Shown: piece after piece, positions 16,061-64,000 of the stretch
Numbering within the stretch: position 1 is the stretch's first letter
Layout of the letters: each line of letters starts with the position of its first letter
DNA from: Echinococcus granulosus
Lineage: Eukaryota; Platyhelminthes; Cestoda; Cyclophyllidea; Taeniidae
DNA: 64,000 bases
Direction: 5' to 3'
Assembly: GCF_000524195.1 (NCBI RefSeq)
Contig: NW_020170393.1
Span: forward strand, 1,461,914 to 1,525,913
Program-made: the position numbers and the translations under genes
The notes under the pieces: generated by a model
The model's input: only the letters and a program-made list of their open reading frames with translations
The model's database searches: none
What the model was told of the DNA's origin: nothing

Positions 16061-16094
16061 GCTACATAATACATTTTTCGTTTAACCCTTCTCT

Positions 16095-19079: not shown

Positions 19080-22000
19080 CGTCAGCGAGAGATAGCGAGC
19101 AAATACTACTGCCTCTCTGGACGCCATTGTAAAGGCATATTTTTAATTACTGATTAACCGGAAAACAATTATTTTTTTTTTGGAAAAACAGACCATTTGT
19201 TACAATTTTTCAGTGGTTTTCTGGTAAAGAAGTTATTGACCCACCAAATATGCCTATCTTATTAGTAAATAGCTTTATCTGATTGTTACTAAGTTACATT
19301 AGGTGTTTAAAAAAGGACCATGATTTTATGTAACAACACTAACAGCTTGGCTAATAGAAACATTGCTGTTATTACAAAGCTGAAAGTTTTGTCATTTACG
19401 GAACCATTTGTGATGCCCGTGTTTCTCCTAAAACCCCAACAAAGTACAGCAATATAGAAAAGTAGCTTAACATTTGGGTATAAAAAGGTTAATGGGCTAC
19501 GGTCACGAACGCAAGACCATTTTGAAAGGTTGGAAGCACGAGTTGCAGGGGATGACGAGTTTCACGTGTTTAAAGGCATACTTAAACGAGCACAGATGTG
19601 TGGGGAGGTGGATTAGCATTCCTTTCTGCCTCCACCTTGATGTAAGTTTTAATAGTAGCTACACTTTTTCATTTTAAAATATTAATCGAAACCTTTAGCA
19701 AGGAATTCTGATGCACAAACTTAACCGGTCAAACCCGTTGATGGAAGATATTTGTAATCAAAACCAAGCACCTACATCGAGTGTCTGCTTATTTTGTTCA
19801 AAGTGAAATTAAAACAGAATCCTGTGTTACCAGCAATAGAGGTCTAGCCTTAAGGGTGAATGAGGAGACGTCGAGGAAAAAGACCTGTGGAACGGCCATT
19901 CATTCGTAGGTCGGGTGGGAACTTCTTCCCAGCAACCTGAAAAGCATATGTGTAAGATAAATTGCCACCTCCTTTCCGCACCCAACTAAGGTAGCTGAAG
20001 TATCAGTTTATTCCGATCATTAAATGGCTCATTGTTTACTTCAAACAAAAGATTGATTTAAAGTACTCGAACCAGTGGATGGAACATAATGCGTCTTTCC
20101 CAGGCAATATCTTTCATCTACCTCGAGGTTTGAGAAGGATCCATGCTCCAGTGAAAGTGAGATATTTTATTCGTTCCGTTAGAGATATTAGTGTAGCTCT
20201 CCATCATTTTCAAACTTAAGAAGCATCGCCCAAAAATTTGCTTTACCGTAATTTGCGCATTTTTTGAAATCCTCCTCTTGTCATAATTGAGAGGCCGTAT
20301 TGCAAATTCCCTTATTAAGATTCTTGTAAATTCTACTTACTCAAGGGATTCAATGAATGCAACAAAAGTACGAAACTGTCATGCATCAGCTTGAAAGAGG
20401 GCGGAAAGTAGAGTGCGTGCCCCTTCGGGAAACCAAGGCTCGTGTGTCTCATGTCTGTCAAAGATTGTGCGCATTTCCCTCCACTTCCTGCTATCACTCG
20501 GCGCCAGGCCAAGCTGAACGCAATCTTTAAGGAAATTTAAAAAAATACCCTCCACCTTAATTAATATATGTTACATGAAAAACGAATCGCTTTAATGCAT
20601 TAATTATTATGTGGTAAGGTTTTGGACAAATTGGGTTTGATTTCGTGTAAAGATGTCCTCAAAAAAGCTCTTCTTTTTCTTGGAGTGAATGCAGTATTTT
20701 ATATTTGTGTTACTAACACTAAATGAAAGGAAAGTTTGACATCCAGTTCCTAATATTTAATGTCTTAGAATGAGGTGTTAAAAACTGCTGTCTGCTGATA
20801 TTATGCTGTATTTGGATAATAATTTGGAGTGTTTCCAATCCACTACTTTATGTGCCAGCTAAAAGTGAATAGACAACGCTAGAATAGGCATGACTTTAAA
20901 ACCGCTGCAATAATTACGAAAAAAAGTGTATTTTCCTGTCTTAGAAGCTTAAAATAAAGTTTACCTGATCTCTAAGATTTATAATAGGTACGGATTCCTT
21001 AGACTAGTTTAAGTTGAAGTGAACCCAGCGGATTTTAAGGCATGATTTATTTCCAAAGCACAAATTGAGTGGGAGGTCGTAGACATGGCCGAGTGAGTGT
21101 GCCGGAAAGTCAAAGACATAAACCGCTGAGGGTGATGGGTCTGACTGTAGTTAATTGCACCACTGCAGGGATGAGCTAGCGGACTCTCAACAGAACCCTC
21201 CAGGGTAAAACAGTAACACGTAGTTTCTTAGTTACCTACGAGCTACCGACGACAGACAAGTGGGATTCCCAATCAGGCAGTCATTTAGCCAGTATTTCCG
21301 TCCATCCTTGTGGCATTTGGCCTTAAACATCTTTAAAATTGTCTGGTTCTGGAGGTCATTTTAAAGTAATTACTTCGGAGTTGGTTGAAATTGTCTTTTT
21401 AGATCAATTTTCTTTACTTAAGGCACGCGACCAGTTTGTGTTAATTTACAGTTTATAAAAAAGTAATGAATACCGTTGCCTTCCCTCTCATTCTTCACTT
21501 TTCCCACATTTCTATTGTTGCAAGGTGCCAATCTTCCGCAGGTCAACTTCCATATATAAAGTTGCAAGCAAATTGAATTGACTTTTACAATTTATTATGT
21601 CTATCATGAATTGCCATACACGGTATTTATAAATAATATCATATCTGTTTTTCAGGCATTGAAGTAGGAGTAGATGGCAACACTTAGTGAGTTTTGAAAA
21701 ATCCGTAATATCAAAATATTTTTTTTAGTATAATGTGAGATAAACAAGTGATTTTGCTCGACTTTACCTTCGTGTAGATATTTCCAACACTCTACAAACA
21801 ACATTAATTAAGAGGCCTCCTTACTTCTGTTGCAGAGTGAGCAAAGCATCAGATTCTGATGAAATATTGCCCAATTCTTTCGGGTAGCGCCTTCTGTAAC
21901 AATGCATTCACAAACAAAAAACTGGAAAATTAAGGAAAATAAGGAAAGACCTTTTGTGAAATTTACGAGCGGGATTGAAGCCGCTTCACAGTTGATAATT

Positions 22001-23250
22001 CTTAGTCCCTGTGACCATCTAGGTTTAATGGACATTTGAGAGTAAGGAAAGAGGACTGTGTCGGATTCAACAGAGCAGCAATTTGGAGTCACCTATGAGG
22101 AACCAGATCACCTGACCATTCTCATGCACCATCTGCTGGGCTTAAGCGAAATTTTATGCTATGATGTAATCTTTTTTTCAGTCTTTAAGGAAAACTGCAT
22201 GGAACAAATAGTCACAGGTCATAAACTTTGGTCGTTCAACGTGGGAATTGCGAGTTCAGTACCAGTGGCAGTTTATGAACTGCAGTGAAGATTCCCTTGA
22301 TTAAGTTAGAGAGATGCAGGAATGACAATGTTTATTCTTAACGCAAGAAGTGAATTTATTTTGTTACAAGTCAAGTGATGGAGTGATAAAATTAAAATAG
22401 TTTCGGGTGATCCAGGAAATTGTAAATATTTGATATATTTGGGAAGTGAGGTGTGAAAAATCGACTGCCAGTCACCGAACACGTCTCCTACGATGTTATC
22501 AATGTCTAAACTATCATTTATCGTTGGTTTTGCTTAACAAAGCACAATTTATTTAAAAGATCGAATGCGAAATAGCCTATTTTAAATGTGGGAAGTATTT
22601 ATCACTTTAGACAGAAATTTTTCTTTTATATGCTACTTAAAAAAGTGACCTTGGCAACATTGGACTTAGTAAAAAGTGGTGCGCGTGACCTCCCACTTAT
22701 AGCTACTACGCCTATCTGTGGTCAGTTCAGTCCAATCCACTCCAGTCCAAACATGGATTCTTGTGAGACAGGGACCTCCTAGCATCGTCTCTTATTTGCA
22801 GATGATTTTTGACACAGTACAATGCAGTAGGCCTCGTTGATTTCTGATAGATTCAGACTCAGTCAAACACGTTCACGTAAAATTGGGCATTTTTCAGCCT
22901 TGATATTGAGACAGCACAAAGGTGCGCCTGAACGTCAGTGACAGTGTCCATTGTGGAGGCTGGTAGCACTTCTGCATCACGAAGATCATCTTCATAAAGA
23001 ACCATCTAGTCAGTGGAATGTTAAGTCGGGTACGTCCGCAGATCTGTGGTTTGACCTGCTGGTGAGCCTATTTCTCGAGAACGAGATACACTATGGTGAG
23101 ATTAGTTACTTCACGTTGGGTATCATGACAAGCAGGCAAGCAGGCAGGTAGGCAAGCGAGGAAGAGGGGAGACAAGCAGACAGGTAGACAAGCAGCAGGT
23201 AAATGTGTAGGTGAGTAACACGTAAATCTATAAACAGGTGGAGGAATTCC
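19080..23250 (+). repeat. R1: copy of the long dispersed unit
   Basis: Collinear with several other parts of the window. 19080-19700 matches R2 (26330-25740, reversed) and R5 (57150-57300); for example 19590-19603 and 19616-19631 recur exactly at 57219-57232 and 57244-57259. 19770-19860 carries the NRGL block shared with R2, R4, R5 and R6. 20090-20210 matches R4 (49490-49610) and R6 (62930-62815, reversed). 20350-23200 matches R3 (35920-38200) and R6 (61960-59540, reversed); for example CTGAACGTCAGTGAC near 22928 recurs near 37976. All frames in it are short or broken. It ends at a GCAGG-rich tract also found at the same place in R6. Confidence 0.8.
23129..23200 (+). repeat. Degenerate CAGG/AAGC microsatellite
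   Basis: Imperfect repeats of AGGCAAGC, CAGG and ACAAGCAG lie directly after TTGGGTATCATGACA. The same boundary sequence precedes the degenerate counterpart in R6 (59645-59560, - strand) and a weaker one in R3 (about 38160-38200), so the tract belongs to the ancestral repeat unit. Confidence 0.75.
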
Positions 23251-24399
23251 AAGCTTTGCCTGTTTTTGCGCTTATCTATTGCCAAGATGAATAAGATAGT
23301 CTGACACACACAAGTAGTCAGAGAAGATAAGGGGACAAGTAGGTACTGAAAACAGGATTATCTCCAATGACTGGCACGCACTGTGCTTTATTTAAGGAAA
23401 TATTAACTAGTGGAAAGTAGAAAGTGGTTAAAACCTCTATCTTATTAACTAGAGTTATTGCATTTACAATCACTGGAACGGCAGGATAATTTACTTTGAC
23501 AGTGTACTATGTTATTCTTGACCTAGAATTTGGGGTAGGCTTATGATGTTCATGTTCAGAATGTCCAAATAATACAATAATTTTTTTAAAAAAAGCTGAC
23601 ACACAACTTACCGAATGTCTGATAACACCTTTCAAAGCAACTCCACGCACTGTGCGGATTGCATTCATAGGTGCCAAACAAAGGTGAGCTCCTGTTATTG
23701 CGGACAAGTATGCCAATGAACCAGAGAGAAGTAGCATCGCATAGGGGTCAAATTAGAGTAGCCGGTTGGTACTATTCATGGGTAAAAGTTGTCTGCCTGA
23801 AGTGCATAAATTTTTCCTCCCATTATATTCACAGCCTGGCAACTATTTTCAAAGTCGAGAGGAACATAGACTGTCAATTTTTAACCCTTGACCTTTGATA
23901 TACACTTGTGAGAATATATGAGTTGTGTTGCCTATTTTCTGCAATGGTTCCTTCCCGAAATGTTTTTAATTGACTGCTTTTCCAGAAAGTACACAAGAAT
24001 TTTTTCCATGCGTAAAAACTTTGGTTCTCATATCAGTCAGGGCGGTTGTAATTTTATAATGACTGCGATTGGAGACTGGTGTTTCTATTTATTTCACCGT
24101 TTTCATGACGGAGCTCAACCAGATGTTGGGTTAAATAATTAAATCATTTTTTCTTATTTATGTAAATTTTTATTTGCAAAAAATAACTAGGATCAGTATC
24201 TTATTCCTCAGATGGGGGAAGCAGATAGCATATTCTCACACGTAAACTACCGTGCACAGGAGATACTGAGTCTGCTGCCTTTTCCATCCACTGGAGTAAC
24301 CAAAACAAATGAGATTTACTAAGCAATTAATGGTTTTTTATTAATTCAGGTGTAACCTACCTTAATATTCCGACTGTTCGTCTCACAATTCTTTCTGTT
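23251..24399. other. No supported gene
   Basis: AT-rich stretch after R1. Frames at 23671-23898 and 23918-24142 (+) are short, without splice context or family resemblance. Confidence 0.4.
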
Positions 24400-24620
24400 T
24401 TCTTGGGCACTGCCGGTGCAGTCTTTGTACTTCCACTGGTCGGCATGACTTCTGGGCGATGTCAGCAGTCTTCCACCACCTCTGTACTTTCTCAATGCAT
24501 ATTCTGCCCAGGCGCTGCGTCCACTTTTGACGTCAGGATAGACTAGGAATGCTACACTCGCGTCAGCAAGTGAGCCTTCCCCAGATTCTTATCAGAGAGT
24601 ATCAGTTAATGCGCCTTAAC
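24400..24620 (+). repeat. E repeat
   Basis: GGTCGGCATGACTTCTGGGC near 24439, CACCTCTGTACTTTC near 24476, GCATATTCTGCCCAGG near 24497, and a GACGTCAGGATAGACT block near 24530. This is one of the best preserved E copies. Confidence 0.65.
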
Positions 24621-24839
24621 CACATTCCAAAATGTTAAGAGTCTAATAGGCTCAATGTAACTTGCAAGGATGGAACCTAATTATTAAGGTGCTCGCAGCT
24701 GACAGTACTTTGCCTTTATTACTGTGGCCTTATTTATGTTATACTACCTTGGAATATGATCTACTATCACTAGGGAAAAGGGTCCTTTTGGCAATATCAC
24801 TTGACCTACATGGTTAGATAGTTTGTTCCGCAGGGATTA

Positions 24840-24930
24840 ATATCTCAGAAACGCATGTTCTGCCCTAAAATTATGTTTTCTTCCGACTTCAGGAAAGACT
24901 TGAGGCGCTACAAGGCTCTGCAAGAATAGC
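24840..24930 (+). repeat. E repeat, partial
   Basis: GCATGTTCTGCCCTAAAATT followed by TTCCGACTTCAGGAAAGACTTGAGGCGC. Only the right half of the E family is present, about 400 bases after the previous copy. Confidence 0.6.
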
Positions 24931-26442
24931 ATTTCTGGGACTAAAAGATACCCATGCAACCTGTTTTACTCTAAATGGCAAACCACAAAACTAGAAGAAC
25001 AGAACATGTCAAAGACGTAGTTAACTGAACTTTGACAATTTGGGAATCTTCATGGAAAAGAGTATGATATTTTATACTCTTTTGCAACGCTACTTGTAAC
25101 TTCCCCTTGGTTATTTCAAAGAGTCTCGTGTAAGTGGCTTCAGACAGTGGCTTATTGTGTACAGCAAAAGCGTTCGTACAGCTCTTCAAACCAGACGTGA
25201 AGCCTTGGTTGAACCATCTTTTACTAGTTAAGAATCAGGACAATACAACTTCAAAAATCCCTTATCAAAAGCAATTAGAAACAAGAAATTTGTAGCAAAT
25301 AATGCGTCATTTAACGAGTGAGATGAGTTGCTAATTCACTTTTTGCTACCTAGCCGGAAAAATTAATGGCAATCCATCCTAAATGGATTTTGGGCGGAAG
25401 AATCACAAATGATTCTTGAATTGCCGAGAACAAATTTTCTAAATGGCCCAAGAAAGAAAGCTTATTCCATTATGCCTTTTATCTCGATGTTTCTCCACCT
25501 ATCAAAAGCTAGGTGAATGTCGGTTCTTTCTTTTTAAAGCCCGGCCTCTATTGCTGGTAATAGACGCATAATGACCTTTGAACCCGACGAACCGACACTC
25601 AGTGTAGTTGCATTGACCGAATTACAAGTCACTCTCATTGGCAAGCTTGGTTATTTTGTCCATTTTATAAAATCTCTTACCCAAAATTTTAGTTGATATT
25701 TTGGAATAAAATTGATAAGCTGTTAAAAGGTCAGCATAAAAAATGCAGGTGGGAAGAAATGCAAGTCTACCTCCCACACACATCTGCGTCTGTTTATGTG
25801 CGTGGTTAGCCGAGAGGACTTGTTGACCTCTAAAAATAGTGCTCCCATCCGTGTTTGTAACCTCCCAGCCCCTTTGTGCCCCAATGCCAAGCCATTCTCC
25901 CACACTGGCATGCTTTGTTGGGGCTTTAGGAGAGACTCAAGCACCGCAAGTGTCTCCGTAAGGGACAACACTCCAAATTTCATTTCAAAAATTTCTAGAA
26001 GCAAATTAGTTTGCAAACTCAACAAATATTTCGAATTCATAATTTTAAAAATAGCGTTTTTATTATTCATGACGATAATGATATTCCACAAAACCGAGCC
26101 CATATTTTAGTATTTGAGATACTACATTTAAAACCAAACAAGGCCATTTCCCAAAAAGATGGACGCATTTGGTGAAACAGTTATTTTCTTGTCAAAAACA
26201 AATAAAAATTTTCACAAATTTACTGCTTCTACTTTAAAGGCGATTTCTAGGTGATTTTTTAGCAACTTAGAGGCCCGCCTTTATGGTGGTGTCCCGTGAG
26301 ACAGTGGCGATTACTCACTCTCACTTGCTGACAAGAAGGAGGACAAGTTTATAGGGTTTGTACGTTATTACTAAGTTCAAAAGACATTTTCTTAACTCGC
26401 TAACACTTTTGCATGTCCTCCAGATGTGGATGCAGCCTTCGG

Positions 26443-26847
26443 CTACGGTATTGTTGAGGTGCCTATTTTTGGATTGAAGACTTCAAGAAGGCTTATACTG
26501 TGAAGGTGGAGATTACATACTACTAAACGTGGAATGTCTTGAAGGACTTTGGTCATCACACTTACCGTCTCAATCAGGTGACGATAAATTTGTTGACTGA
26601 AAGATTGCAATTTTGACAAGACCGTTATGAAGACATAACTGCCGGATGAGGTCGCATAAAACTCTCCGTTGAAATGCCCACACAGAGCCGTAGAGACCCG
26701 TCGTCCCATCAAATCAAATTGATTTAACCGTTCAAGTTCCACTTGGCTTGATGGAATTGTAGTGTTGAGGGAAATCAATGAACGTATGAAAAGATTCCTC
26801 TGGCAATTGGCAGATGTTGAAGAGGATGGCTTCTCCAGGCCATCCAC
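26443..26847 (-). pseudogene. Open frame with exon-like end inside R2, unknown
   Basis: A 134-codon frame on the - strand. The part up to 26566 reads LSKLQSFSQQIYRHLIET and stops at a consensus splice donor GTAAGT (26565-26560). The matching segment in R5 (about 56535-56588, + strand) reads LSNLQSFGRQIHHHVIET and ends at an identical GTAAGT at 56589-56594. Upstream, however, the two copies share a different frame: EAILFNICQ here and EADLFNICQ in R5, broken by stops. This looks like a decayed exon carried by the repeat unit. No domain is recognised. Confidence 0.35.
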
Positions 26848-27676
26848 TGCGAGCTGAGGGGTCGTACTACCGCAGAATCTCTAATTGCTCCTCACTTATG
26901 GGACTGTAAATGTGTGCTTGCATTGCGGTTTGTGTGGATATTGTTGTGGAGGCTAATACACAAGTGAAATATTAACCAACCGAAGGACCATTTAAAGCAT
27001 GGAAGACTTCCCGGTTTTCCATGGGTCAGCATCCATACCACAGCAAGTGGTAAGAACACGTTCCCTGCTGTAAGTGCATCATCAGCCAGGGTTAGAAACG
27101 AGGCAAGAAGAAGATGTTATGATTTTTTTGCTTGTTTTAAATTTACTACAGCCTAAGCAAAGTTCCAGAGTTCCAAGTTTTATAATGCAAGCCATTTTTT
27201 ATGGGCTGTACTAGATGCGAATATTTACTTGCCAAAATTTGCTGACGGCAAAGTATTTCCCCCTTAAAAATTCCATTGTGTGTCTTCGCATCACAGATTA
27301 GTGGGTTTTGTGTATATGATAGACCAGGTTGGGGATGAATGGTGATGTGCATTCTTACAACACAACAATGCAATTTGCAGAAGAGGCGCGAGAAAGGGAA
27401 TATCCCACCATGCAGCAGGGACATGTCAAAAATCTATGCAAGGAAGAGGCGGATCAAAATACAGGAAGTTAATAGCTATAGACAGTTTGGAGGCACTTTT
27501 AGAACAATTCATCAAAATTAAACCTTTCTTAAATTGTAATTTGATCTTATGCTAATCTCATTAAAAGAGAGGCATCTATAGATTTAGGAGAGTAGTCTTA
27601 GGGATATGTTACTGTAGACTGTATAAACTTAGCCGTGGTTAATAATTTGTAAGCATATTTAGATTGCAAATCAAAA

Positions 27677-27769
27677 AAGGAGGAGTCAAGTTCATACTAA
27701 GTAGGTATATGCCCCTCCTCTTAGTGGTAAATTGAGGAGGGCTTCACTACTAATTAATTACTTAGTAGT
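27677..27769. repeat. Cluster of short inverted repeats
   Basis: CCTCCTC (near 27715) pairs with GAGGAGG (near 27734) across a 13-base loop. An 8-base perfect stem, ACTACTAA at 27746-27753 with TTAGTAGT at 27762-27769, lies just after. GGAGGAG near 27678 could compete for the first arm. They could form alternative hairpins; function unknown. Confidence 0.5.
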
Positions 27770-28843
27770 ATCTCCACATCTACCCAGTTGCATTTTAGCC
27801 ACTTATACATACGTAGGCAGTAGCAAAACTGCATTAAATTTTAAAACGTAGAATCGGATACCTTACACCTTTGTTTAAAAGACGCAGGGATGAGGTGTCA
27901 TTTAAAGCATTGCTTTATTAACCACAGACCATTAAAAAATCACTTCGAATTGTTAGCATAAATGTTTAATTAAATTCTGCTTTTAACTAGATGGGAGTTA
28001 ACTTCAAACCACTCAGTGTTTGACAAAGTAAAAGTTATCGGTTTAAAGCGCTACGTAGACCCCACCACAAATGAAAATTTTTGCTGCAAATTGGAGGATA
28101 TCAACAAATCCGCCGTTTAATTAGCCTCTTGGAGACCGCTAATTATTTTTTTTGGCTGAAGTGTTGCCCGCTCACGAGGTTTGTAAGACCACTTTCGTGC
28201 AAAATGAGCATGAACGCATGGAAAACAGAGAGAGAACTTAAGATTTTACAATAAGGTCCTCTCTGAGATAGCGAAAATTGACTTAAGCCACTCATCTGAA
28301 TGATCATTAAGTATTATAAGTTCATGCGGACGATTCTAAGTAGATGACATCTAAATTATTAACACAAAGCAAAGTAAAGATGGAAAAGTTAAAGAGAAGC
28401 TGGTGAATGATGAAGCCAGTTTCCATTGGGAGTCTAATCACATTAGGTTTTCATATTTTTTATGGTTAAATTTTCTTACTGCTTTGTTACTTTTCTAGGT
28501 ACTTGACATAGCATTTTGTTTTCCCTCACGCAACTCTCCTGTCACCCGGCCAAGTAAAGCTAGCTCATCTTGAGTCAACTACACGAGCGGCGGTGACATT
28601 TTGACAACCTTGGTGCCAACGTATCTCATAGTTAACTATTCTAAGTATTTTGATGTTTTCTTTTGCTAACCTTTGTGAATTTTGGACCACAGAAGAGCTG
28701 GTTCATAAGCACATACAGTTAGAAGGATTTTGTGCCATTTTAAGCTTGTTGGCAAAGTCCAAAGGCAGAATCTAATCAATTTGAATAAATAAAAGATGCG
28801 TTTCGCTCACGAGTGACACCATTTGGGAGGTGGAATTTCGAGC

Positions 28844-29050
28844 TTATAAAAATTTGTCTGGAGTGAAAATTTGGATGCATATAATGGAAGTTTTCTCCAA
28901 AATAAAGCGACTTGGGAAATAAAAAATGCCCCGCGTATTGTTGATTCCAATTAGCGCTGCTACGGATTCCCCACGTGTTTGGTACTTTTCCATGCGGTAG
29001 TCGTCTAGCACATCAGCTATTGCTTTCGTCAATCGAGTTGCTTCATGCAA
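28844..29050 (-). pseudogene. Decayed coding-like segment shared by R2, R4 and R5
   Basis: The frame contains TKAIADVLDDYRMEKYQT and AALIGIN. R5 at 54155-54255 (+) reads RKAIDDVPDDLNKVKYRT and AALSGINK, and goes on to SSIIAQVTLFG before a stop. R4 at about 45940-46055 reads FIAQITLF in the equivalent place with many changes. The first tandem copy in R5 (about 52990-53110) keeps VVDDVLHDF. DNA similarity alone would make all frames look alike, so coding ancestry is only suggested. No family recognised. Confidence 0.3.
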
Positions 29051-29144
29051 GCTTCAGACTGTTCACTCTAATGTGTTAGCATGGTATGCAAAGAGCTTTT
29101 CTTCAATAAAACCAGCCTCCATATTTCAGTAACTACAATTAAAT

Positions 29145-29158
29145 GGGGGGGGGGGGGG
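29145..29158 (+). repeat. Poly(G) tract, 14 bases
   Basis: Fourteen consecutive G, very unusual in this AT-rich context. It lies at the edge of a conserved part of R2 and has no counterpart in R4 or R5, so it arose after the duplication. Confidence 0.9.
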
Positions 29159-32100: not shown

Positions 32101-33060
32101 TTTATGCCCTAGCAACTTTTAAGGTATAAATGTACTTTCTTCCAACTGCCGTCTTGCAGCGTTATGACAATAGAGAAATCTTCCTCACAATAGTGCACTT
32201 TTCAGTGCAAATACCTTCAACTCTCCATGGTTTTAAACATAATCCTCCCCATATAATATATTAAATGGAAATGGAAAAGGAGAATGTAGTTTTCAGAAGC
32301 ATAAGTTGGTTCAAACTGTTGCTGTGCTGCTGCACAGGTAACAGTTTTGGAGTACAGCATAAACAAATAAATCTCTCGGTTGACATTTGGCCTTAGAATA
32401 AGCTAGAGATTTTTGACCACTTGATAGATCGCCTTCCAAAGAACTTAGGTCAGTGCAGACTCGGCAGTATTTTAGTGCACTGATGCAGCTTTCTTTCTTT
32501 TCTCCTTATCATCTTCACAAATCCCTCAATGGATTGAGCGACGTAGACGTTTTGATAGTCCCACTGCATTGAGATTTGGGGGGTACAAACCACAAAAAAC
32601 AGAAACACAAATAAGTATGACCGTTTGATTAGAACGCACGTTTTAAACCTGCCTTGCAACTGGCTTCTTTCGCTTTGGTCTCGACGGACCGGCGCAAAGC
32701 ACATGTGCTTGTTGGGTGGAGCAGAGACAGGTGCCCCACTGGTGGCCCCAGTTCAAGGCTACCCACCATCAAAAGTCCCATAAAATTTTGTGCATTACAC
32801 AAATTGTTTTCTATTTCAAACAGATAATAATGAAACACCTCAAAATACAGCTAGGGCTTGGGGTCCCAATTGACAAGAGATTTTGTGGCAAAATTTTGAA
32901 AGCTTTGAAACTACGTATGAAAAGTTATCCCAGTGAATATCTTAAAGCCATTTTGAGAGAGCTTAAGCTCAAAGAATAAAAAGAAGTATGAATGATTTGG
33001 AGAGGGTAAATAGAAGAGTCTCGTTTGCAAACTGCAGAGCAGTTGCTTAATTCTAACTAC

Positions 33061-52289: not shown

Positions 52290-52699
52290 CAATGAAAGGC
52301 TAATCGCCTTATGCTTTGATTCCTGTAGCCACGATTTTACAATTTTACGGGTAAAATTACCTACATAGTGGTCAATACAAACAGGAGAAATACCGGTATT
52401 TCTCATATTTCGGTCATTTAGACAAAAAGAGCCTTTATGCCCTTCCCTCATTACCAACTCATTATTCTGCATTAGTATCCAGACAACTTTTTTCGGTTAT
52501 AATGACAAAAGCTTATTCTAGATGCAACGGTTCCTCCTCTGGGAGGTTCGTCCAGACTTGAAATGAAACTCCGATTCTTAATTGAGAAGCTAATTTACCA
52601 CCAATGCAAATTCATGCGTCGCGGGGCTTCAGCACATCTAAAAATTAGGAAAGGAGAAGAAATTTTTACTGATACATGCAGCGTTTAGTGCGACATTTA

Positions 52700-54960
52700 T
52701 AGCAGAGGAATCGTAAAATAATTTCATACACTGCTTTTATGTAAAGCGTGGTGACTTATTCTCTCCCACAAATACTTCACTAATGGGAAGCTCGTCGACG
52801 TGCCATCTTTTACTTCGTCTTAGTAACTTAAAGTGTCCTTAATTAAAATACGTCTCTCTTCATCTCACTCTCCGTGATTGTGTTATTGCTGCAAGGTGGA
52901 GGCTGTTTTTTATTGCAGAAAAGCTTTTTACAAATAATATCATCACAGAAGTTGAGCAGTTTTTCAACTTGCAAAAAGCAAGGTGACTGCTGAAAGTAGT
53001 AGATGATGTACTACACGATTTTAGTTTGGAAAGTGCCAGACACATAGGAGTACTATAACAGTGAGAAGTGGAATCAGAAGGATGCGGCTTTGTTCTTTTA
53101 TTGCCTAAGTTGCCTTATTTGGATGCAAACACTTCTAGTAGACGCACGCGAAGTGGCAATCCATATGAGGATTAAAATTGCCCATTTAGTCTCACCACTA
53201 TCTTTAATCAGGCATAATTTACTCAGGAGTTGGCTCACTTCTAAATGCATCCCGTAATTTAAAATTGCAAGAACAATGAAAAAAAATTTAGATGCAGAAG
53301 TGACATTGACCATGGCGCCTATCCAAAGTAAGTCAACACGGTCATAAAATGTGGTGGCCGGAGTGAGTGGAATCAGTTTGGCGATGACTCATAAGGGGAC
53401 AACATTACTGAGCTCTGAATGGTCCGATGTAGAGATTGCTAATGGGAAAACACATCCTTGCTTGAAATACAAATACGCATTTAGCAGAGGAGCAGGAATA
53501 AACTCATTTTATGGCTAGTCTGGTTGTGTGAACCTCCCAAAACACGTGCCAAAGCTTGGGATTCCGTTCGCTACACTGTTTTGTTGGTAAATAAAACGCA
53601 AATTGCGTTCGCTTAAATGCCATGCAATGAAGTTCTACAACAGGTTAAGGAAGGGCACAGAACACCCTGACTCTCCTCATTAATGTATACTTTGAAAGAA
53701 GATCTGACTGGTTTAAGGTGATTTCTTGAATTGATTTAACAAATAGATGTTGTGGTCATGGTGACAAGAAAATAATGACAAAAGTGGGGAACTTGGGTGC
53801 GAAAAAAGTAAAAAATATGGTTACATCAAGTAGCTTTTGTGTGCCAGCATCATATTTTTTAACTAATTCGTCCATATATTCTCCTTTTTCAGTCTTCTAT
53901 GTATGCAGAATTTATGTGGGGTGTGGTAATTTATCAACTCCCGAACATACTTTCTTCACTGATGGAAGGCACATCGACGTAACATCTTCTTAATCTTACG
54001 AGTAGTCAAAAATGTCTAAGATTCAATAGGGTTGTCTCCTCCTTTCCCCCTTTTCAGTATTTTACTGAGATGTTTAACCTAAAATTCAAAAAAATTGCAT
54101 TTTATTTATTCTCAACACAGGTGAAAGGGCAGTTGGAAAATTGGATGGAAAACCGCAACTGAGGAAAGCAATAGATGACGTGCCGGATGACTTGAATAAG
54201 GTAAAGTACCGGACACTTGGGGATGCCACAGCAGCGCTAAGTGGAATCAACAAGATGCAGCGTAGCTCTATTATTGCCCAAGTTACCTTATTTGGATAAG
54301 AGTCCCAGTAGGTGCAGGCGAATTCGCGGTCCAAAAAAGAATTATTAATACGTGTCTAATCTCACCGCTTCCCCTCCTCAAAACTAATTCACTTTTAAAT
54401 AAATTTCGTAGCTATAAACAGCGAGAATGATTGGAAATTTTTATGCAATTTTGATCGCTCGGCTAGGTGGTGACCATTGTCCCCATTCAAAGCGATTCGG
54501 TGCGCTATTTAAAGGTAAAAGGAAGGGCCTCAACTTGGTGATAGTTTAAATGACAAAATTATCATTGAGATATGAAGCGCCAGAAGTGAAAAACGTTGGC
54601 GAAGAAATATTTTTCTGCTTGATTCGCCTGCATAGGTTAAGTGGAGAAGCAAAAGTAAACCAAGTTCAAGTTGTGCAAACTTCCTAAACCACGCGACTCA
54701 GCTTCTAATTCCGCACTCCGTATAAATTCACTTGTGGGCGAAATGCAACTTTTAATAAGGAAACGCAACACGACGATGCTTTGAAAAAGGACTTCTGCCC
54801 CTGAAAGCGATTGATTACTGTCGTTGAAGCTTGCAAATTACAACTAGGTCCAAGAATGCGAATTCACTTGCTTGGTAGTAATATTCCTGGGATCGCAGTC
54901 AACCGCATTGAACACTCCTTTGTGTGTCAGCGTCATAGGTAATGGCTACTCTGGACATAA
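52700..54960 (+). repeat. Tandem duplication inside R5 (about 1.2-kb unit)
   Basis: Unit 1 is about 52700-53890 and unit 2 about 53890-54960. Each starts with a block like GTGGTAATTTATC...ACTTTCTTCACTGATGGAAGG (53930 in unit 2; ACTTCACTAATGGGAAG near 52775 in unit 1; CTTCCTTCACTTATGGAAGG near 45717 in R4) and ends with GTGTGCCAGCATCATA (53848) or GTGTGTCAGCGTCATA (54923). Both units have diverged strongly from each other, so the duplication is old. Confidence 0.7.
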
Positions 54961-55623
54961 CTTCTCCCTTTCGGTGTTAGCGATTGCCATGGCTTCTTTG
55001 TAATGTAAAGGAAATCTTTCGTTCTCCTGCCATTTGAATAATTGGTGGAACTGGAGTAGAAAGTGGACGACACTACAGTCGTAATGTGGGTGAGCTAAAG
55101 TAAAAACAGTTGAATGACATCAATGTTCAAAAAATACTTTTTTACTAGCCGCTTAACTTAGTAAGCTAAACCACTAAGACACAAATGTTGAAGAGCGGAA
55201 TCCAACATCCTCTATTTAGGTGGTATTCCTACCTCTAAGCGAGACAATTTAAAGGTGATATTTAAGCCGTGGCTTTTGTTGATAAACTTACAACTGTTTG
55301 TTACACTACCCCTTTATGGTTAATTGGAGTGTCTCTGCAAACAGAAGGCCTCGACAAATGCTGCAGATACCAGCGAACCGAACAACCGCCAGCTGAAATT
55401 GTCAAGAAAAAATATTATCGCAATCCTAAATCCGAATAGTTAGCACACTAAAGCAGAGAAACAATAAGACCATTTAATAATGTAAAACTTAAGAATTTTA
55501 GGCTACTGCATTTCCTAGAAAAGCAAGCACTATCATTCTCGTGCTTTTTTACAACTTTTGCAGGTCTAATCTGATTTGCGTCAATAATTTAGGTGTTTGT
55601 TATCTGGAATCATCCACATGAAC

Positions 55624-56295
55624 TCATGCTTCAGAGTGGCTATTGGGGTATTTGTCTCGAGTCCATTTTGGGCCCATTTTGGGAATTAAGAACACTTTCC
55701 ATCCCCAAAGTTGGTCTAGTATGGCAAGAACCTCCGTTATATTACTATGTGCCCAAAAATCAAGCGTCTTTCTACACGAAGGCCCCCAGTTCACTTGACA
55801 GGGAGAAAATTCTTCACCTCTAGTTACTGAGGGCAAAAGAATCTTCGCATTTGGCTGATCCCACAAGCCATAATATCCGTTGCGAAATGCAATTAATTCA
55901 TTTTGGGTAATCCTTTTGAATTTTGGAATGAAATTTTTTGGATAGAAATATTGCTCAGGCAGTAGCAGTCTCAAATTGGGTAAAGAAATTGTGATGCCTT
56001 CTTCCTGCTTCATAAGAAGGTAAAGCTGACAGCGCGCTCTCCTTACAATGTGTCGTGCCTTCAAAAGGAAATATGTTTGTGTGTGTGTGAGTGAGGTGCA
56101 TATGACGAACCTACGTTTGTGAAAACTTGCTACGAAATGGCTTCTGGCCGATAGGAAAAGTGCAAGGTCTCCTTCACCCTCTGAATGACCCCTATACTGG
56201 CAACTTCCCCACTCTTGGATTAACCATCGTAATGCCATCGTCCTCGTGTACATTACACGCACACGTTTAACTCCAACAGCCGAAAGGCAATTCAA
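55624..56295 (-). CDS. 223-codon open frame, unknown
   Basis: The longest open frame of the window. It ends at 55624 on the - strand, in R5. By simple base composition a stop-free run of this length is unlikely by chance in 64 kb, which argues for a real or recently lost coding role. The protein is basic, with segments such as QEWGSCQYRGHSEGEGD, HIVRRARCQLYLLMKQEEG and FIPKFKRITQNELIAFRNG; I see no signal peptide, membrane segment or known domain. Against: the frame runs antisense to the exon-like blocks of R5, and the matching part of R2 (about 27000-26880) does not appear to keep it. No family recognised. Confidence 0.25.
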   Translation of the reverse strand: MNCLSAVGVKRVRVMYTRTMALRWLIQEWGSCQYRGHSEGEGDLALFLSARSHFVASFHKRRFVICTSLTHTQTYFLLKARHIVRRARCQLYLLMKQEEGITISLPNLRLLLPEQYFYPKNFIPKFKRITQNELIAFRNGYYGLWDQPNAKILLPSVTRGEEFSPCQVNWGPSCRKTLDFWAHSNITEVLAILDQLWGWKVFLIPKMGPKWTRDKYPNSHSEA

Positions 56296-57780
56296 AATTC
56301 TTCAGACGTAATACTCCTCTTCTCACAATAAATGTGCTATAGAAGCTGACCTCTTCAATATCTGTCAAGTGCTCGAAGAACAGTCTTATTCACCCCTCGA
56401 TTTCTCCCAGTACCGCAACTCCACTAATTCAAGTGGATTTAGAATGAATAAAATCAAGTTGGTCTGGTAAAAAACAAGTATACATAAGCCAGTGTGGACT
56501 TTTTAATGAGAACAATAGGGATAACACAATGATCCTATCGAATTTGCAATCTTTTGGTCGACAAATCCATCACCATGTAATTGAGACAGTAAGTGTGACG
56601 AATAATGTCTGCAGAGCGAATCCAATTTCTGAGGTCAGTGATTTCTACCCTTAGAGTGCACTCTTTTTGAGAGTCCTCAATCATTAATCGGCATCTTGAC
56701 GGCACCGAACTGGGGAGATGTGTGTGAATCTGGAGGACATATGGAATTGTTTTTGAGTTATGGAAATGTCTCATGACCTTGATAACGTCAAAATTTGTCC
56801 GCCTTGTCAGTAAGTGGGAGGGAGTAAACGCTAGTGTATCGAGGGTCACCGTCATAGAGACGCATTTCTAAATTACTGAAAAATCATAGAAGACATAATT
56901 TTTTAGAGCAACAGTGGCGAATCTATTACATTTTTTTGTAATTATGACGAGGAAATTATTGTTCCACAAGCATGTCCATCTTCTTAGGAAATGGCCTCGT
57001 TTGGTTTTGACTGTGGTATCTTAGATATTAAAATAGGAGCAAAGTCTTGTGTAAAAAAAATTGCTAATCCGGATTAAAAAACGACGGTTTCGTTGAAAAG
57101 ATAACAAAATTGAAATTTTATTTGAAACTACAGATTAATTCATTTAAAGAAATTTTGCCTTATAAAACAATTTGCCGAGGGTAACGAGCTCCTCGCGGTT
57201 TAATACACCGGTAAAGAGGCACAGATGTGTGGTAGGTGAATTCGCATTCCTTTCTGCCTGCACTCTCGATGCAGATCAATCAAGTAGATGTATTACCCCA
57301 CTTTAGAAACTAAAACAAAACCTCTGGTGAGGCATTTTTACAAATTAAATTGGCTAGGCAGTCTGTTTAGTGAAAGCAATTTGCGACCAGAATTAAGCAC
57401 CCATATTAAGTTCTTGCTTACGACGATCAGAGGGGACTTTATGGATTGCGGTGTTGCCAACAATAGGGGCCTGGTCTTAAGATAAATGTAGGAATATTTT
57501 TGACTGTTAATAAATGCGGAAACAGCAAGGAAGAAGGAGGTATGGAATGAGCATTCCTTCTCGGACCCTTGATGTCAAAAAGTAAGAGCAACGAGTATCA
57601 TTTGGTTAACAAATTTGAAACCGGCGTAGTATCTCCGCCATTTGTTATCTCTCACCTGAGCCTGATGTCACAATACATGACAGATATACTTTATCAGTTT
57701 ATGGTTGGACTATATTCCAGCCATGCCAGTAAGTCATAGCCTTTCTATACGCCGGCAAAACATTATGCCCAAGTATTATG

Positions 57781-59539
57781 TCTTCTTTTGTCTTTAGGGG
57801 GCCGTAGTTGATTTAGATAAGCTTCTAGACTAAAAAGTCCTAGAAGGTTTATTTCTTATTATTTGACCTTCAGTATACTGAAATTTCAATTGCTATGTAC
57901 CTACCTATCCAAATATGTGAAGCAGTTGAGGTGTCCGAAAATGTTTTATGTACTAATAATGGTTTATAATCAAGGATAATATGGATAAACTTCAGGAGAG
58001 TAAAGACAAAATACTGTCGACTGCAAATACCATATTAATCAGGTCCCACTTTTGAAGGTTACACGAAAAGCATTTGACTTACGACCTCTGAGGGATCGGA
58101 CACAATACATTCTGTAAGAATCGTGAAAAGCACTCGGTGGCGTAAAAGTGGCACTCCGAGGCTTGTCTGAAGTCCAAAAATGTCATGATACAGAGACAGT
58201 AAATGTACTACCGACGTACTACTGGGCAGGCAGGCTGATGGCATGGCTAAGGGCTTAGGCCGCCAAGCCAAAGCACAACGGTGGAGCCTGGAATTTTAAA
58301 ACATCATTAGTTTTGTAGTAAATGTCATCTATATTGCCTACTAAAATTACAGGAATCTTCGAGTATATTCGGTAAAGGTTGGGATATGTAATACAGTTTC
58401 TACAAGTAGGGGGTAAAGTAAAGTAAATATATTGCAAATTTTTAAATAATTGTTGAATTGTTCAACCTAGGATCAATTTGGGTTCTGCCATGGAAACCTT
58501 GCACTTTAATAGAGGTATTGATTAGGTGGGCCATTCCGCTAACTTCATTTGTCGACTTGGCGATTCTAAGACTGCATCCACCTTCAGATAACACAAGATC
58601 TAACGTCTATACAATCGGAATGTAGTCTTATGCGCTTTATTGAGAGTGTAGTAAAAGAAGGACACATATTGAGGAACAAGCATTGTATGAAATCGGTGAC
58701 TTCCATGTCATGCCCACTCAATCGCCTACATCAAAGTCCGAGAATTAATAACAACAGTATATATTCCGCCTTGACTTTAGCGATGGTTATCAGGCCTCAA
58801 ATTGAAAGGGAGGGGAGTTTTATGTACATTAGTCAGGCCATTCTTCTTCCATAACCTACACAATAGCCTGCTTTGCATTCGTTAGCAGTCAGCCTCAAAA
58901 GATCGCTCTCAGACACTCCGGTTTGACTCTCCTATGATGCTACTTTCCTCTAGTTTACTAATATTTATGTCTAAAATAGCAGGAGCTCAGTTTGTTTAGC
59001 GCTAGCGAAGACCAATCGTACAGTGCGTATTGTGACTTTGAAAGTTGCGTCCAGGCATAAATCTGGTTGTATGGCAGCTTTGTTAAACAGTTGATTTTGA
59101 CAGTCAGACGTGCGTACGTCTGTCTAGCCTTCTCTTACTTTGTACCAAACTTACTAATCATACAACTGATACAATGTTAAAGTTAGGTATAACAAAGTAC
59201 AAAGGTGGAATGAGTTACTGGACCATTTTGATGATTGCAGTTATAACTCCTCTATTCAGCATACTGTAAAATCTAACATTTTTTCATCTTTCCAGTGTAA
59301 ATCTTTCCTTGGAGAAATCTCGGTGAAAGCCATTCATCGGTGATAGTCTATTCTTCAGCTACCATCTATTTATACAACTTCTCAAACCTTTCGTATATAT
59401 ATGTTTCTAACTTTCCGATTCCATGTACAAGGCAAAACGCCTATACTGAGGACCCACACTCCCACGTATTGTTCAATAAGATTTAAAAAGATAAGAAGTG
59501 AAATTTAGGAATTAATTGGTGGTATCATAAGGTAGGGTT
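57781..59539. other. No supported gene
   Basis: AT-rich DNA between R5 and R6. Frames at 58059-58437 (-) and 58630-58854 (+) are short and unsupported. Confidence 0.4.
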
Positions 59540-61680
59540 AGATTATCATGTGTCAGTCTACCCACCCGCCTATCTGATGCCGGTATTTTTGCCTCACCGC
59601 CTGTTCGCTCGCCTGTCTCCATGCCTGTTATGATACCCAACACGCACTGATTAGCCCATAGAAAATACATCTCGATTTTAAGGATTGTAATCACTATGTG
59701 CATCGCACGACTTGTCTCTCCTACAAATTTTGACAGTTTACACGAAACTTCTGCCAGCTTCTAAAATCCGGTGTTCCACAGACTGACTTATTGTTCACAG
59801 AAAGTATCGTCCTGTTATGGAAGCCGCCACTGTTGTTCAAACACAGGGATTTGCAGTCACATTGGACAAGTGACACAGTCTGCATCCATTATCAATCAGC
59901 GGGGCCTACTGTATTGTGCTGTGCCTGAAATCCTATGTGAATAGGAGTAGATACCCTTAAGTATCTAGCTGACAAGAAACCTCCCACCATTGCCTTCCAT
60001 TTTGAGGAGGGGTGCATGAACTGGAGTGGATAGGCCTGCACTGACCCCATATATGAGTAATAAATGCTAGTGAGAGGTCACACCCACTAATTCCTTTAGC
60101 ACGCATTACTGCCAAGGTTGCATTCTTTTAAATTACTTATAAAAGTAAACTGTCACTTTTAACTGGAAAATGCTTCTACCATTTAAAATATACTATTGCA
60201 CATCTAATTTTATAAGTTAAATTTATTTTCTTCAGCGAAATGAATGATTAATAATTTATCAAGTAGCGGTGATCCCAGGGGAAGAAACATCTGATCACTC
60301 TCAGTCGGTTTTGCGCTTTTTTTCACAAATGTAGCAAATTTTTAATTCCCTTGAGATACTTGAAAGCATTTCAATTTTGTAATTTATCAGTTTACCTGAA
60401 ACAAAATTCCCTCCTTGCGTTAATATTGAACTTTATGTTATTCATCCTTCTCCAACATTTTAAATGAATCTTCACTGCAGGTCATAAATTGCCACCATTA
60501 CTCACCGCATAATTTTCACGTCAAATACCAAAATTTTATATCTTCCGACTATTTGCTGCATGTAGTCTTCCTCAAAGACCGGAATATATTAAAAGAGTAT
60601 AGCAGCGGACTTCACGGAAGCTCAGCAGATGGCGTATGTAGACGGCTAGTTGAACTGGTCTCTCATTCATGACCCAAACAGCGACTGCTTTTAATCGGAC
60701 AGAGTTCTCTCTCCCTCCTTTCTCTCATGTCCATAAAGCTTTATAGACTAAGCGTGCATTGAACTGCAGCTGATTTGTTCATTATTGCAATAAATAGATA
60801 GGAAGAATGGAAAGATTAGAAGAAAGTAAACAGTGTGCATTCCTGTTTTACAAAATGGATATCACTGAAACTTGATAGTGTGGCTTCAGTGGAGGAAAAG
60901 TAATTCTGCTTGTAAGCTTTAATCATTTGAAAGCAATTATTTTAGTAGGTCTCTAGAACCCAGCACCTTCTACTATGTTTAACGAAAATCCCAATAAGAA
61001 AAATCTTAATTGTCTCTTGCTGATATCACAAGAAACTGTAATCAATTTGGTAACCCATGGACTATTAATCACCATTTTATTCGGAGCAGTTCTGTTGAAA
61101 GAGTTTTCCAGCTCTGTTCGGCACTGGTGAGACTAGTTGCAGACAGACTCGACAGCCTCTGTAGTTTGCATCTCCCTCTTGCCAAAATTGGCCGTCGGCC
61201 AAGCCTGTGGCTTTTCATTCCATCGGTACTCTAGCAACCAATCATATTTTATAATGGTAGGGCTTATTACAACTTTGGAGAAGGCCCACGGAGCTACACT
61301 TCAATTCAGAACTATTCTCAGGGATTCACACTTATTGTAAAACTTGGAGGGAAAATCTACCGATGCTAAGCTTCAAAGATATGAAAATATTTTCTTCTTT
61401 AGTGCAGTGATATAAAAATCACGTGACAACTTTGACCCATGTATTTACTTATCTAGAGCATATTAGGAGCAACTGAAAAGACACAAGTTTCTTCTTTTCA
61501 AATACTGAATAATAGCAGCCAAAGTTTCAAAGTGGTATCGTCTTTTAAGATTTTGAAAATAAAATAAAAATCCACGAAATTAGCCGTTAAAGAATAATTT
61601 TCCCATTTGGTGTCAGCAATATAAATTTAAAATACCGCAATGCTATGTTGGCAATGAGAGAGTTTTTTTAGGTGATCATT

Positions 61681-62106
61681 CTATAGGATTAAACCGAATA
61701 TGTCCAGTCCCTTTCTACACAATAAATAATGTTGCAAAACATTTTGGGTTTTGAGTAATGCAAATTCGTTAATGCGGAGTGCAATCATTAAGCCTCCGAT
61801 GGTGGCTTTTGCATGGCCAGGCGCTGCGTGACACCGGAAAGTGGAGGCAAAAGTACATTTTTTGACGGGAATTAAGCACACGAACCTTGATTCCGCGGAG
61901 GGAGTCAAACACCATTCTTCACCTTGTTCCAGGTCCGCACACCACGGTTTAGTACTTGGCATTAGACTTACTGAGTCCCTTGGATGAATAGCATTTACAA
62001 GAATTTCAGAAAAACGTTCAAAACTTGACCTCTTGACCATAACAATCTGAAGATTTTTAAAAAGATGCAGAATACGGTGACATATTTTTTGGACAATGCT
62101 CCCCAA
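61681..62106 (-). pseudogene. 141-codon open frame in R6, unknown
   Basis: Contains STKPWCADLEQGEEWCLTPS and VKKCTFASTFRC. R3 (35920-36090) reads CTKLSCVS and CTFPSTSC in the matching frame with stops between; R1 (20350-20520) reads STKLSCISLKEGGK, then a stop. So the frame was probably longer in the ancestor and is open only here, or is open by chance. The length alone is not significant. No domain recognised. Confidence 0.25.
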
Positions 62107-63585
62107 CTATTGAATATGGTGGCTTAAAGAGCTTAAGCGGCTCCATGATGGAAAACAAAATTATTTTATTCCAAAGCAGCACATAAAAACAAATAGAGCT
62201 TAAAAAGCTCGACAGCCCTAAAAAGCGTATTTGACACAAAATTTCGAACTTAGGACAAAATACATTCCAATGTTTTGGTAAGAGGTGCTGTAGAAAACAA
62301 TTTTTCATTAAAATTATGTAAATTGCATAAGTGTATAAGGTACAACTTCTGCACTACTAAAAATTACATTCCTCTGCACAACTCCTTAATCTAATGGCAA
62401 TGGCCTTAATGTTTTGAATGCGCAAAACTGAAACACTGAAATGTTAATAGATCTGAGATCTCAGATGGATACCAGGCTTTGCTATTCATGCAATCTGTCC
62501 AATTTCTGTCCAAACATCAAAGCACCCTTTAAACTTACGCACTACTGCAGGCAGATCAGCGAACTCGTGCTAAGACTTGTTCTGTTATGCTGTCTGATCT
62601 GCCCTCTTGGTCACACTCAGATTGTACTTTCATGATTGCCTTTGAGTTGATAACTTTTGAAGTTAATAATAAAACTTGACAGATTTCCTTAATGACCTAT
62701 ACCACTACTATAGCGAACAGATTTTCGTGTCTACAGACAATCAGCCTATCATGACCTTAATTACTGGTCCTCTTTAATACCGAAATACATATAATTTTTA
62801 TCCTAGATACTCTGAAGAGCTACACCACTATCCTCAACAGAACAAACCTGCATGTTCCACTTTCATTAGAGAATGGATTGATTTGATACCGAGGATGTTG
62901 GTGAATGATATTGCCTAGAAAAGATGCAGTATTCTTTACCCAACAGTCAAAGTACTTTTTGATCCCCTTAGGTTAAAAAAAATGAGACGGTGGGTAAAGG
63001 AAAAACACACTTGTCAACTGAGGTGCAAAAGACAGCTTTGTTGCAAGATTAGAGGAAAATTGATTGCTACAGTAATTGTCCTCAGACCAGACACTTTCAT
63101 CTGCCTGTCTGCCTCCACCAACTTGTTCGCAATGGTGTTTACTATGACCATAAACTTATAGTTAATGCCTGTTCAGGTAAGAGAATTTATCTGACAAAAA
63201 GGCTTCGCTCATATCACATGGTTCACCCATTAAGTAATTGTTTTCTATTTATAGTGTCTAAATGTTTCGTATATTGCTTAGGTTCCTGTAGAAGAGCTTT
63301 GTTAAGTAAAGATTCATGCACAATGAATCAGGATAACAAAACTTCAAAAATCTCTTATGAAAAGTCATAAAAGTATGAAGAGTAAAGTAAATAATAGATC
63401 ACTGAATGAGTGGAATGAATTGATGGTTCACTTGCTTTAGTTTACTGGAACAATTAACAGCCATTCATCTCACCTAGATATCAGAATGGCAACTGGATTT
63501 GCTTAGGAGAAATTTTTCACCTGACCCAAATAGGAATGTCCATTCTATAACTCCTTCTCCTCGGCTTCTCTTAACTCATCAACAG

Positions 63586-63825
63586 CTAGAAAATTTTCTT
63601 TTTCTCTCTTAAGGTCAGACCTCTGTTATTGGCAACATGGTGACCTTTAAATTGTCCTTTATCCTTGATAAGCCGACATTCAATGTAAGAGGCTAATTTC
63701 GATAGAGAATGACTTCCACCAGCAAGTTTGGTTATACTATCCTCTTTGTAAAATAGACAGTATGTCATTGTGTAGCAAAACACTGGAATTTTTTGTGCAT
63801 AACAAAACAATGGGATACTTGACAT
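63586..63825 (-). CDS. Best preserved FYKED/NRGL frame (79 aa), in R6
   Basis: Open on the - strand with SSIPLFCYAQKIPVFCYT, YCLFYKEDSITKLAGG, SKLASYIECRLIKDKGQF and NNRGLTLREKKK. The R4 counterpart (48560-48760) keeps most residues but has a stop in place of the Arg of NNRGL; R5, R2 and R1 keep fragments. Mixed charge, no membrane segment, no known domain. It may be a living exon of the youngest copy or simply the least decayed relic. Confidence 0.3.
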   Translation of the reverse strand: MSSIPLFCYAQKIPVFCYTMTYCLFYKEDSITKLAGGSHSLSKLASYIECRLIKDKGQFKGHHVANNRGLTLREKKKIF

Positions 63826-64000
63826 AATGGACTGGCTTAAGGGTAGGAGGTGGTGTTGATTCTCAAGGTATCGCTATGAAATTGACCCTAGATGGGAGGG
63901 AAAGGACATATTCTACATAGCAACAGGGATATGTCAAAATGAAGGGAAACAATTGCCACAGGCAATCAAAAACACTTTAGCAGCCCTTTATTAATCTTCA

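What the first reader, a model, noticed from the sequence alone, without database searches (positions are those of the whole stretch)
19080..63980. Six partial copies of one long (>11 kb) unknown repeat unit
R1-R6 overlap one another in a consistent order, so they can be laid on a single ancestral unit: the R2/R4 5' part, the tandem part of R5, the FYKED/NRGL block, the CRHEN block, then the R1/R3/R6 3' part ending in a CAGG tract. More than half of 19-64 kb is made of it. I see no reverse transcriptase, transposase, LTR or terminal inverted repeat. It may be a giant non-autonomous transposon, a decayed multi-exon gene family or an old segmental duplication array.
Basis: partly seen in the sequence, partly recalled or inferred. 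Interest (0 to 1): 0.8.

Follow-up and report, generated by a model that had tools for sequence, protein, structure and literature searches.

The report
Old duplication array beside one gene
A stretch of tapeworm DNA beside one conserved gene was copied repeatedly in place, probably tens of millions of years ago; some copies carry a broken front piece of that gene and they look non-functional, so this is an unusually old local duplication rather than a new kind of mobile element.

Summary
The repeats are real. In window 19,080-63,980, 92.7% of bases have another copy within the same 168 kb; five simulated controls gave none. The copies lie on one unit of about 14 kb (my estimate), in both orientations, 61-78% identical in the 30 longest alignments. 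DNA searches with 18,900-62,400 found nothing longer than 107 bases off this contig, while a dispersed family in the flank was found widely. So it is local, not a transposon. Off-window, at the contig end, lies an open frame with a GRIN_C domain, 100% identical over 96% of its length to an Echinococcus granulosus protein. Two window copies hold a decayed front piece of it, cut at the same place. Best reading: the 5' flank and front of this GPRIN-like gene was duplicated, truncated once, then re-duplicated and inverted in place, and decayed. Disjoint copy pairs show no shared constraint in half a and a weak signal in half b. A published intron rate dates the copies to roughly 18-40 Myr. Ordinary in kind, unusual in age and size.

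The parts
18930..19961 (-). left edge of the array: small partial copy, oriented like the right-hand units; matches 56,665-57,591 (+), and 19,050-19,853 of it matches 26,363-25,534 (-)
20140..24900 (+). half a, copy a1
   Evidence: 56-59% identical to the other four a copies in the multiple alignment
25100..34150 (+). half b, copy b1
26467..26868 (-). decayed front piece of the GPRIN-like gene in b1 (residues 91-224 of the 492-residue frame P0001), 52% residue identity
   Evidence: DNA homology to the intact gene ends at about 26,357
35690..40250 (+). half a, copy a2
   Evidence: 73% identical to copy a4 at 73,600-78,480 (-), outside the window
41040..49160 (-). half b, copy b2, inverted relative to b1; no gene piece found in it
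48421..49943 (.). block shared with 63,939-62,474 (holds FYKED and CRHEN)
   Evidence: (73.9% without gaps)
52270..53650 (-). partial extra b copy (b3x)
53890..57620 (-). half b, copy b3
56078..56780 (+). decayed front piece of the GPRIN-like gene in b3 (residues 15-255 of P0001 in two matches in different frames), several stops; DNA homology to the intact gene ends at about 56,782
57800..62190 (-). half a, copy a3
62474..63939 (.). partner of 48,421-49,943 (inverted); an assembly gap starts right after the window
24348..25009 (.). relics of a dispersed TRIM-like repeat at the a1/b1 border; further relics at 39,696-39,849, 41,313-42,158, 57,703-58,294

Best explanation
This is an ancient local duplication array at one end of a contig of Echinococcus granulosus (or a very close relative). 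An ancestral GPRIN-like gene had its 5' flank and first part copied by DNA-level duplication. One copy was truncated inside the coding frame (shown: two decayed copies end at the same point of the gene and continue into the same other sequence). That truncated copy with its surroundings was then duplicated again several times, in both orientations, and a duplication of about 15 kb took along an already built junction between units (shown: 28.3-43.5 kb matches 87.7-69.3 kb across the b1/a2 junction). The copies then decayed (inferred from stops and from the lack of shared constraint). The intact gene remains at the far end. The molecular mechanism of each step, replication-template switching with fold-back or ectopic recombination, is inferred, not shown.
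For: Locality: DNA searches with six pieces together covering window 18,900-62,400 gave no match longer than 107 bases off contig C260, while the same tool found a dispersed family in 12,000-19,000 with 827 first-look candidates. Gene source: intact 492-residue frame with GRIN_C, E 4.3e-14, 100% identical over 96% to E. granulosus ECG_05652; relatives listed from Hydatigera, Taenia asiatica, T. crassiceps, Hymenolepis and others. Decayed pieces: 52% and 43% residue identity. Common truncation: DNA homology ends at 26,357 and 56,782 against 127,640 and 127,626. DNA-level copying: similarity extends into at least 4 kb of the gene's 5' flank. No coding signal: mismatch periodicity at or below null and 1- and 2-base indels dominating without an excess of threes, frame lengths near simulated ones. 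b1 against the intact gene: dN/dS 0.45, about what a dead copy against a constrained gene would give.
Against: In half b two of three tests show a weak per-site correlation between disjoint pairs (r 0.078 and 0.069, null sd 0.024-0.033; the third 0.034), so a little constraint or shared mutability is not excluded. Identity along alignments is mildly over-dispersed (sd 1.18 against 0.98). The longest frame in the array, 225 codons, slightly exceeds all 20 simulated maxima (129-221). The dN/dS value is soft: the same alignment read in the two wrong frames gives 0.61 and 0.73. Three assembly gaps lie in the array, so copy number and order are incomplete. The genome search lists only best candidates; it did not even list the query's own place. 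Window 62,400-64,000 was not searched genome-wide. Half a has no recognised origin. The intact gene sits in a 7.48-kb, 99.99% identical tandem that ends exactly at the contig end and may be an assembly artefact.
Confidence: 0.86

Rival explanations
1. A giant non-autonomous transposon: the unit moved as an element and happened to accumulate here.
For: Long unit, both orientations, no recognised gene of its own in the fragments scanned.
Against: Long matches at one locus only in 103.6 Mb; junctions between units were themselves copied; the unit carries part of a gene with its 5' flank.
Confidence: 0.03
2. A decayed tandem gene family: the units were once whole genes that lost function.
For: Two copies hold a decayed front piece of a GPRIN-like gene.
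Against: The relics lack the C-terminal part with GRIN_C and share one truncation point, so the amplified unit was already truncated. Among 150 array fragments one Pfam family fell under E 0.001, Lysyl_oxidase at 0.00068; a genome search lists that family at five places, all on contig C159, so I judge it chance. A second, unrecognised gene in half a cannot be excluded.
Confidence: 0.08
3. A live non-coding locus: copies act as a regulatory or long non-coding RNA array for the gene.
For: Weak per-site correlation in half b in two of three tests; a few 60-base windows at 90% identity or more in pairs that average 62-74% with gaps.
Against: No correlation in half a over 3,263 columns (r 0.008, null sd 0.017) and 0.035 in a second test over 1,575 columns (null sd about 0.026); window-level correlations range from -0.62 to 0.40 with no consistent sign; no Rfam family at gathering scores in the window.
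Confidence: 0.05

Closest known systems
Segmental duplications / low-copy repeats
   Same: Kilobase-scale, on one contig, both orientations, nested duplication of earlier junctions, partial gene copies.
   Different: The usual definition (recalled) asks for at least 90% identity; these are 61-78% in the 30 longest alignments, so far older.
Macrosatellites (for example D4Z4, DXZ4; recalled)
   Same: Array of multi-kilobase units.
   Different: Not homogenised, not strictly head-to-tail.
ta-TRIM elements of taeniid tapeworms (PMC4558846; passages and section 18 seen)
   Same: Relics of a ~1.1-kb dispersed family, in which 12 of 18 members show direct terminal repeats of 51-227 bases, lie in the array; the paper gives LTRs of about 198 bp.
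   Different: They are small passengers; breakpoints are not enriched near them.
EgRep (Marin et al. 1993, not seen; described in PMC4558846)
   Different: The EgRep sequence was not at hand; identity with this array untested.

Membership tests
Segmental duplication (strict definition, recalled) | Length of at least 1 kb, few copies, not a dispersed repeat | tested here: met
Segmental duplication (strict definition, recalled) | Identity of at least 90% | tested here: not met
   61-78% without gaps in the 30 longest alignments; only the contig-end 7.48-kb pair is 99.99%
Transposable element | Dispersed copies in the genome | tested here: not met
   one locus; off-contig matches are at most 107 bases
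Transposable element | Transposase, integrase or reverse transcriptase | tested here: not met
   none among 150 of 1,174 window fragments and 61 of 167 fragments to the right; the rest was not scanned
Transposable element | Target-site duplications at clean ends | not tested
   no isolated copy was found to examine
Macrosatellite (recalled) | Head-to-tail array of near-identical units | tested here: not met
   both orientations; mean identity 66.8% without gaps over 92 alignments of 400 bases or more
Pseudogene copies of a GPRIN-like gene | Homology to an intact gene and disabled frame | tested here: met
   two window copies; 1 stop in the match at 26.5-26.9 kb and 7 in the match at 56.3-56.8 kb; both lack the GRIN_C part
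Pseudogene copies of a GPRIN-like gene | Gene copy accounts for the whole unit | tested here: not met
   the recognised gene piece is 0.4-0.7 kb of a unit of about 14 kb

The most novel reading that the evidence does not exclude
A locus that kept re-copying and inverting itself beside one conserved gene over some 20 Myr, through the Echinococcus-Taenia split, without selection on its sequence: a long-lived, self-renewing fragile site whose copies form a readable fossil record of duplication steps, possibly serving the neighbouring gene by its bulk or spacing rather than by its letters.
Probability: 0.1. Interest if true: 0.55.

Novelty: new member of a known kind. Interest (0 to 1): 0.33.

Why it matters
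Duplications this old usually fade beyond recognition or are lost (general knowledge); here more than 100 kb of contig is still readable as copies and can be ordered and roughly dated against a known gene. It gives a test case for how partial-gene duplications arise and decay in a compact parasite genome, and it makes a clear prediction about which copies other taeniid tapeworms should share. It also shows how such an array can be mistaken for a new giant repeat family when only a window is read.

Tried and rejected
Giant transposon: rejected by locality. Lysyl oxidase: one fragment of 150 hit Pfam Lysyl_oxidase at 0.00068; a genome search listed that family at five places, all on contig C159, so I took the hit as chance. 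I did not find out which fragment it was (a recalled motif pattern matched no fragment). RNA genes: no Rfam family at gathering scores, no tRNA. Telomere: no run of three or more TTAGGG in the 168 kb and no tandem repeat in the last 3.7 kb of the contig. Centromere: not tested.

Breakpoints caused by the dispersed TRIM-like repeats: of 96 clusters of alignment ends 12 lay within 300 bases of such a relic against 9.9 expected by rotation, P 0.23; with stricter sets P 0.26-0.56. Not supported.

Placing the decayed gene pieces on a protein tree of tapeworm GPRIN: they join near the Echinococcus-Taenia node, but supports around it are 33-77, so before or after the split is undecided. At sites where the three Taenia/Hydatigera proteins agree and differ from Echinococcus, b1 shares 3 with them, 2 with Echinococcus and has another residue at 3; b3 2, 2, 4.

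Protein searches for other gene content: the FYKED/NRGL frame found no candidate; a 141-residue frame of half a had 7 candidates, none at E<=10.

The mismatch-periodicity test has little power when one partner is dead: the known gene piece itself gives only 34, 35 and 47 mismatches by codon position.

Not located: of the 126 fragments, the one with the Sel1 hit (E 2.8e-5) and the second one with Ldh_1_N; neither family appears among the 61 right-hand fragments scanned alone, so both lie left of the array.
Full report
What was checked. The window lies at C260:1,461,914-1,525,913 of a 103.6-Mb assembly of 272 contigs; C260 ends at 1,599,573, that is at window coordinate 137,660. I joined the adjoining stretches into 167,660 bases, window coordinates -29,999 to 137,660, with four runs of N, three of them within the array.

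The repeats are real. Self-comparison of the window gives 38 non-self pairs at E<=1e-6, three of which involve a dispersed repeat left of the array. In the larger stretch 92.7% of 19,080-63,980 is covered by another copy, against 8.4% of window 1-18,899; the 15 bins of 2 kb upstream of the window are at 0-17%. Five Markov controls gave no pair. The array starts at about 18,930 and goes on, with gaps, to near the contig end.

Layout. Pairs chain into long collinear runs. I name two halves: a (20,140-24,900; 35,690-40,250; 57,800-62,190; then outside the window 73,600-78,480 and 110,200-112,800) and b (25,100-34,150; 41,040-49,160; 53,890-57,620 with an extra piece 52,270-53,650; outside 79,860-87,680, 113,000-117,130, 122,570-127,650), slices as given. 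Left of about 40.6 kb the window's large copies point +, right of it -. The longest chain pairs 28,320-44,985 with 87,674-68,901 in inverted order over 14,274 aligned bases at 71%; it contains the b1-to-a2 junction, so a duplication took along an already built junction.

Locality. Six DNA queries together cover 18,900-62,400 (that lies inside that). Off contig C260 two of them give nothing and the others only pieces of 53-107 bases; those fall on TRIM-like relics at 57.7 and 42.0 kb. The same search with 12,000-19,000 found dispersed families across the genome, 827 first-look candidates with 40 scored, and 1-9,000 found only itself. The tool scores only the best candidates, and it did not list the query's own place, so absence is not proof; but long copies at this identity elsewhere should have shown.

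Organism and gene. A partial COX1-like piece with an in-frame TGA looked cestode to me by recall. A TPI exon best matches PDB chain 6oog, 97 of 103 residues by my count of the printed alignment; the species of that chain is not printed there. Decisively, an open frame of 492 codons at window coordinates 126,860-128,335 (+) and again at 134,341-135,816 (+), off-window, has Pfam GRIN_C at E 4.3e-14 and is 100% identical over 96% of its length to a protein named ECG_05652 of Echinococcus granulosus. That search listed 14 proteins; those from Hydatigera, Taenia asiatica, T. crassiceps, Hymenolepis, Anoplocephala and Rodentolepis that I printed are 395-398 residues long and align from an internal methionine of the Echinococcus frame.

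Relics of that gene in the window. tblastn finds residues 91-224 at 26,868-26,467 (-) with 52% identity and residues 81-255 at 56,277-56,780 (+) with 43% and several stops, with a further weak match at 56,078-56,326. A genome search gives the same two regions and, besides the two intact frames, only two weak hits on C36. DNA homology of both relics to the gene ends at the same point (127,640 and 127,626), and past it the two relics remain similar to each other: one truncation, then copying. The copies also share at least 4 kb of the gene's 5' flank, so this was DNA copying and not retroposition. No relic was found in copies b2 and b5; b4 runs into a gap.

No function seen in the copies. Frames fit simulations nearly: 47 of 80 codons or more against a mean of 42 (range 27-54); the longest, 225, lies just above the 20 simulated maxima of 129-221. 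Mismatch periodicity is at or below null and indel lengths show no excess of threes. In half a, disjoint pairs (a2,a4) and (a1,a3) have uncorrelated conserved sites over 3,263 columns (r 0.008, null sd 0.017); the a2,a5 test gives 0.035 (null sd about 0.026). In half b three tests give r 0.078, 0.034 and 0.069 with null sd 0.024-0.033, a weak signal in two of the three; window-level correlations over all five tests range from -0.62 to 0.40. dN/dS of relic b1 against the intact gene is 0.45 with dS 0.65, near what a dead copy against a constrained gene should give, but the two wrong frames of the same alignment give 0.61 and 0.73. Pfam scans: 150 of 1,174 window-array fragments gave one family under 0.001, judged chance; 126 fragments from both sides gave lactate/malate dehydrogenase and Sel1 hits, none of which is among the 61 right-hand ones when scanned alone.

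Age. K2P between copies in 55 alignments of at least 1 kb is 0.26-0.57, mean 0.45 (the contig-end tandem makes some alignments count twice, and that tandem pair itself, at 99.99%, is left out). Koziol et al. (PMC4558846, section 18 seen whole) give an intron rate of 7.1e-9 per site per year, intron divergence of 30.3% between E. multilocularis and T. solium and 3.9% between E. multilocularis and E. granulosus. K/(2r) gives about 18 to 40 Myr, mean about 32 (my arithmetic). The T. hydatigena paper (PMC8384839, passages) used 25-30 Ma for Taenia-Echinococcus. So the steps bracket that split, and all but the contig-end tandem precede the split of the two Echinococcus species. This rests on rough alignments and one calibration.

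Literature. Searches for tapeworm genome with segmental duplication, Taenia/Echinococcus with tandem duplication and related words, Echinococcus granulosus with segmental duplication and GPRIN with Echinococcus (no paper) showed no title or abstract start that describes this array; I did not open most of the listed papers. The chromosome-scale E. granulosus paper (PMC8894454, passages) reports five long gene-poor repeat regions; whether this is one of them is untested. The Hymenolepis paper on terminal centromeres (PMC7653826, passages) describes 179-bp satellite units, unlike this.

Verdict. An old, local, decayed duplication array that began with the front part and 5' flank of a GPRIN-like gene. 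Ordinary in kind; unusual for its size, its age and for how readable it still is.

Noticed in passing
window 15248-16296 and 17176-18083; relics 24348-25009, 39696-39849, 41313-42158, 57703-58294: Dispersed family of about 1.1 kb; 18 of 20 fetched loci (L031-L050) are related, and 12 of those 18 show direct terminal repeats of 51-227 bases. It resembles the published ta-TRIM family; primer-binding site and polypurine tract were not tested.
   Followed up: partly
window 9278-9550 and 9633-9983, + strand: Pieces of a lactate/malate dehydrogenase gene (Ldh_1_N E 4.8e-15, Ldh_1_C E 2.1e-6), the nearest recognised neighbour left of the array.
   Followed up: partly
off-window 122697-130179 and 130178-137660 (window coordinates; contig end): A 7.48-kb tandem, 99.99% identical, holding the whole GPRIN-like frame and ending exactly at the contig end: a recent duplication or an assembly artefact.
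   Followed up: no
L022 (G000:C84:40000-45000): Partial COX1-like stretch on a 106-kb contig with an in-frame TGA, in two separate pieces; perhaps a nuclear copy of mitochondrial DNA.
   Followed up: no
off-window 81147-81695 (window coordinates): A stretch that matches its own reverse complement at 62%, a possible centre of an old inverted duplication, with TRIM-like relics in it.
   Followed up: no
window 14550-14925: A second, smaller dispersed repeat with matches on C239 and C269; the two loci fetched for it (L040, L045) did not join the main family.
   Followed up: no
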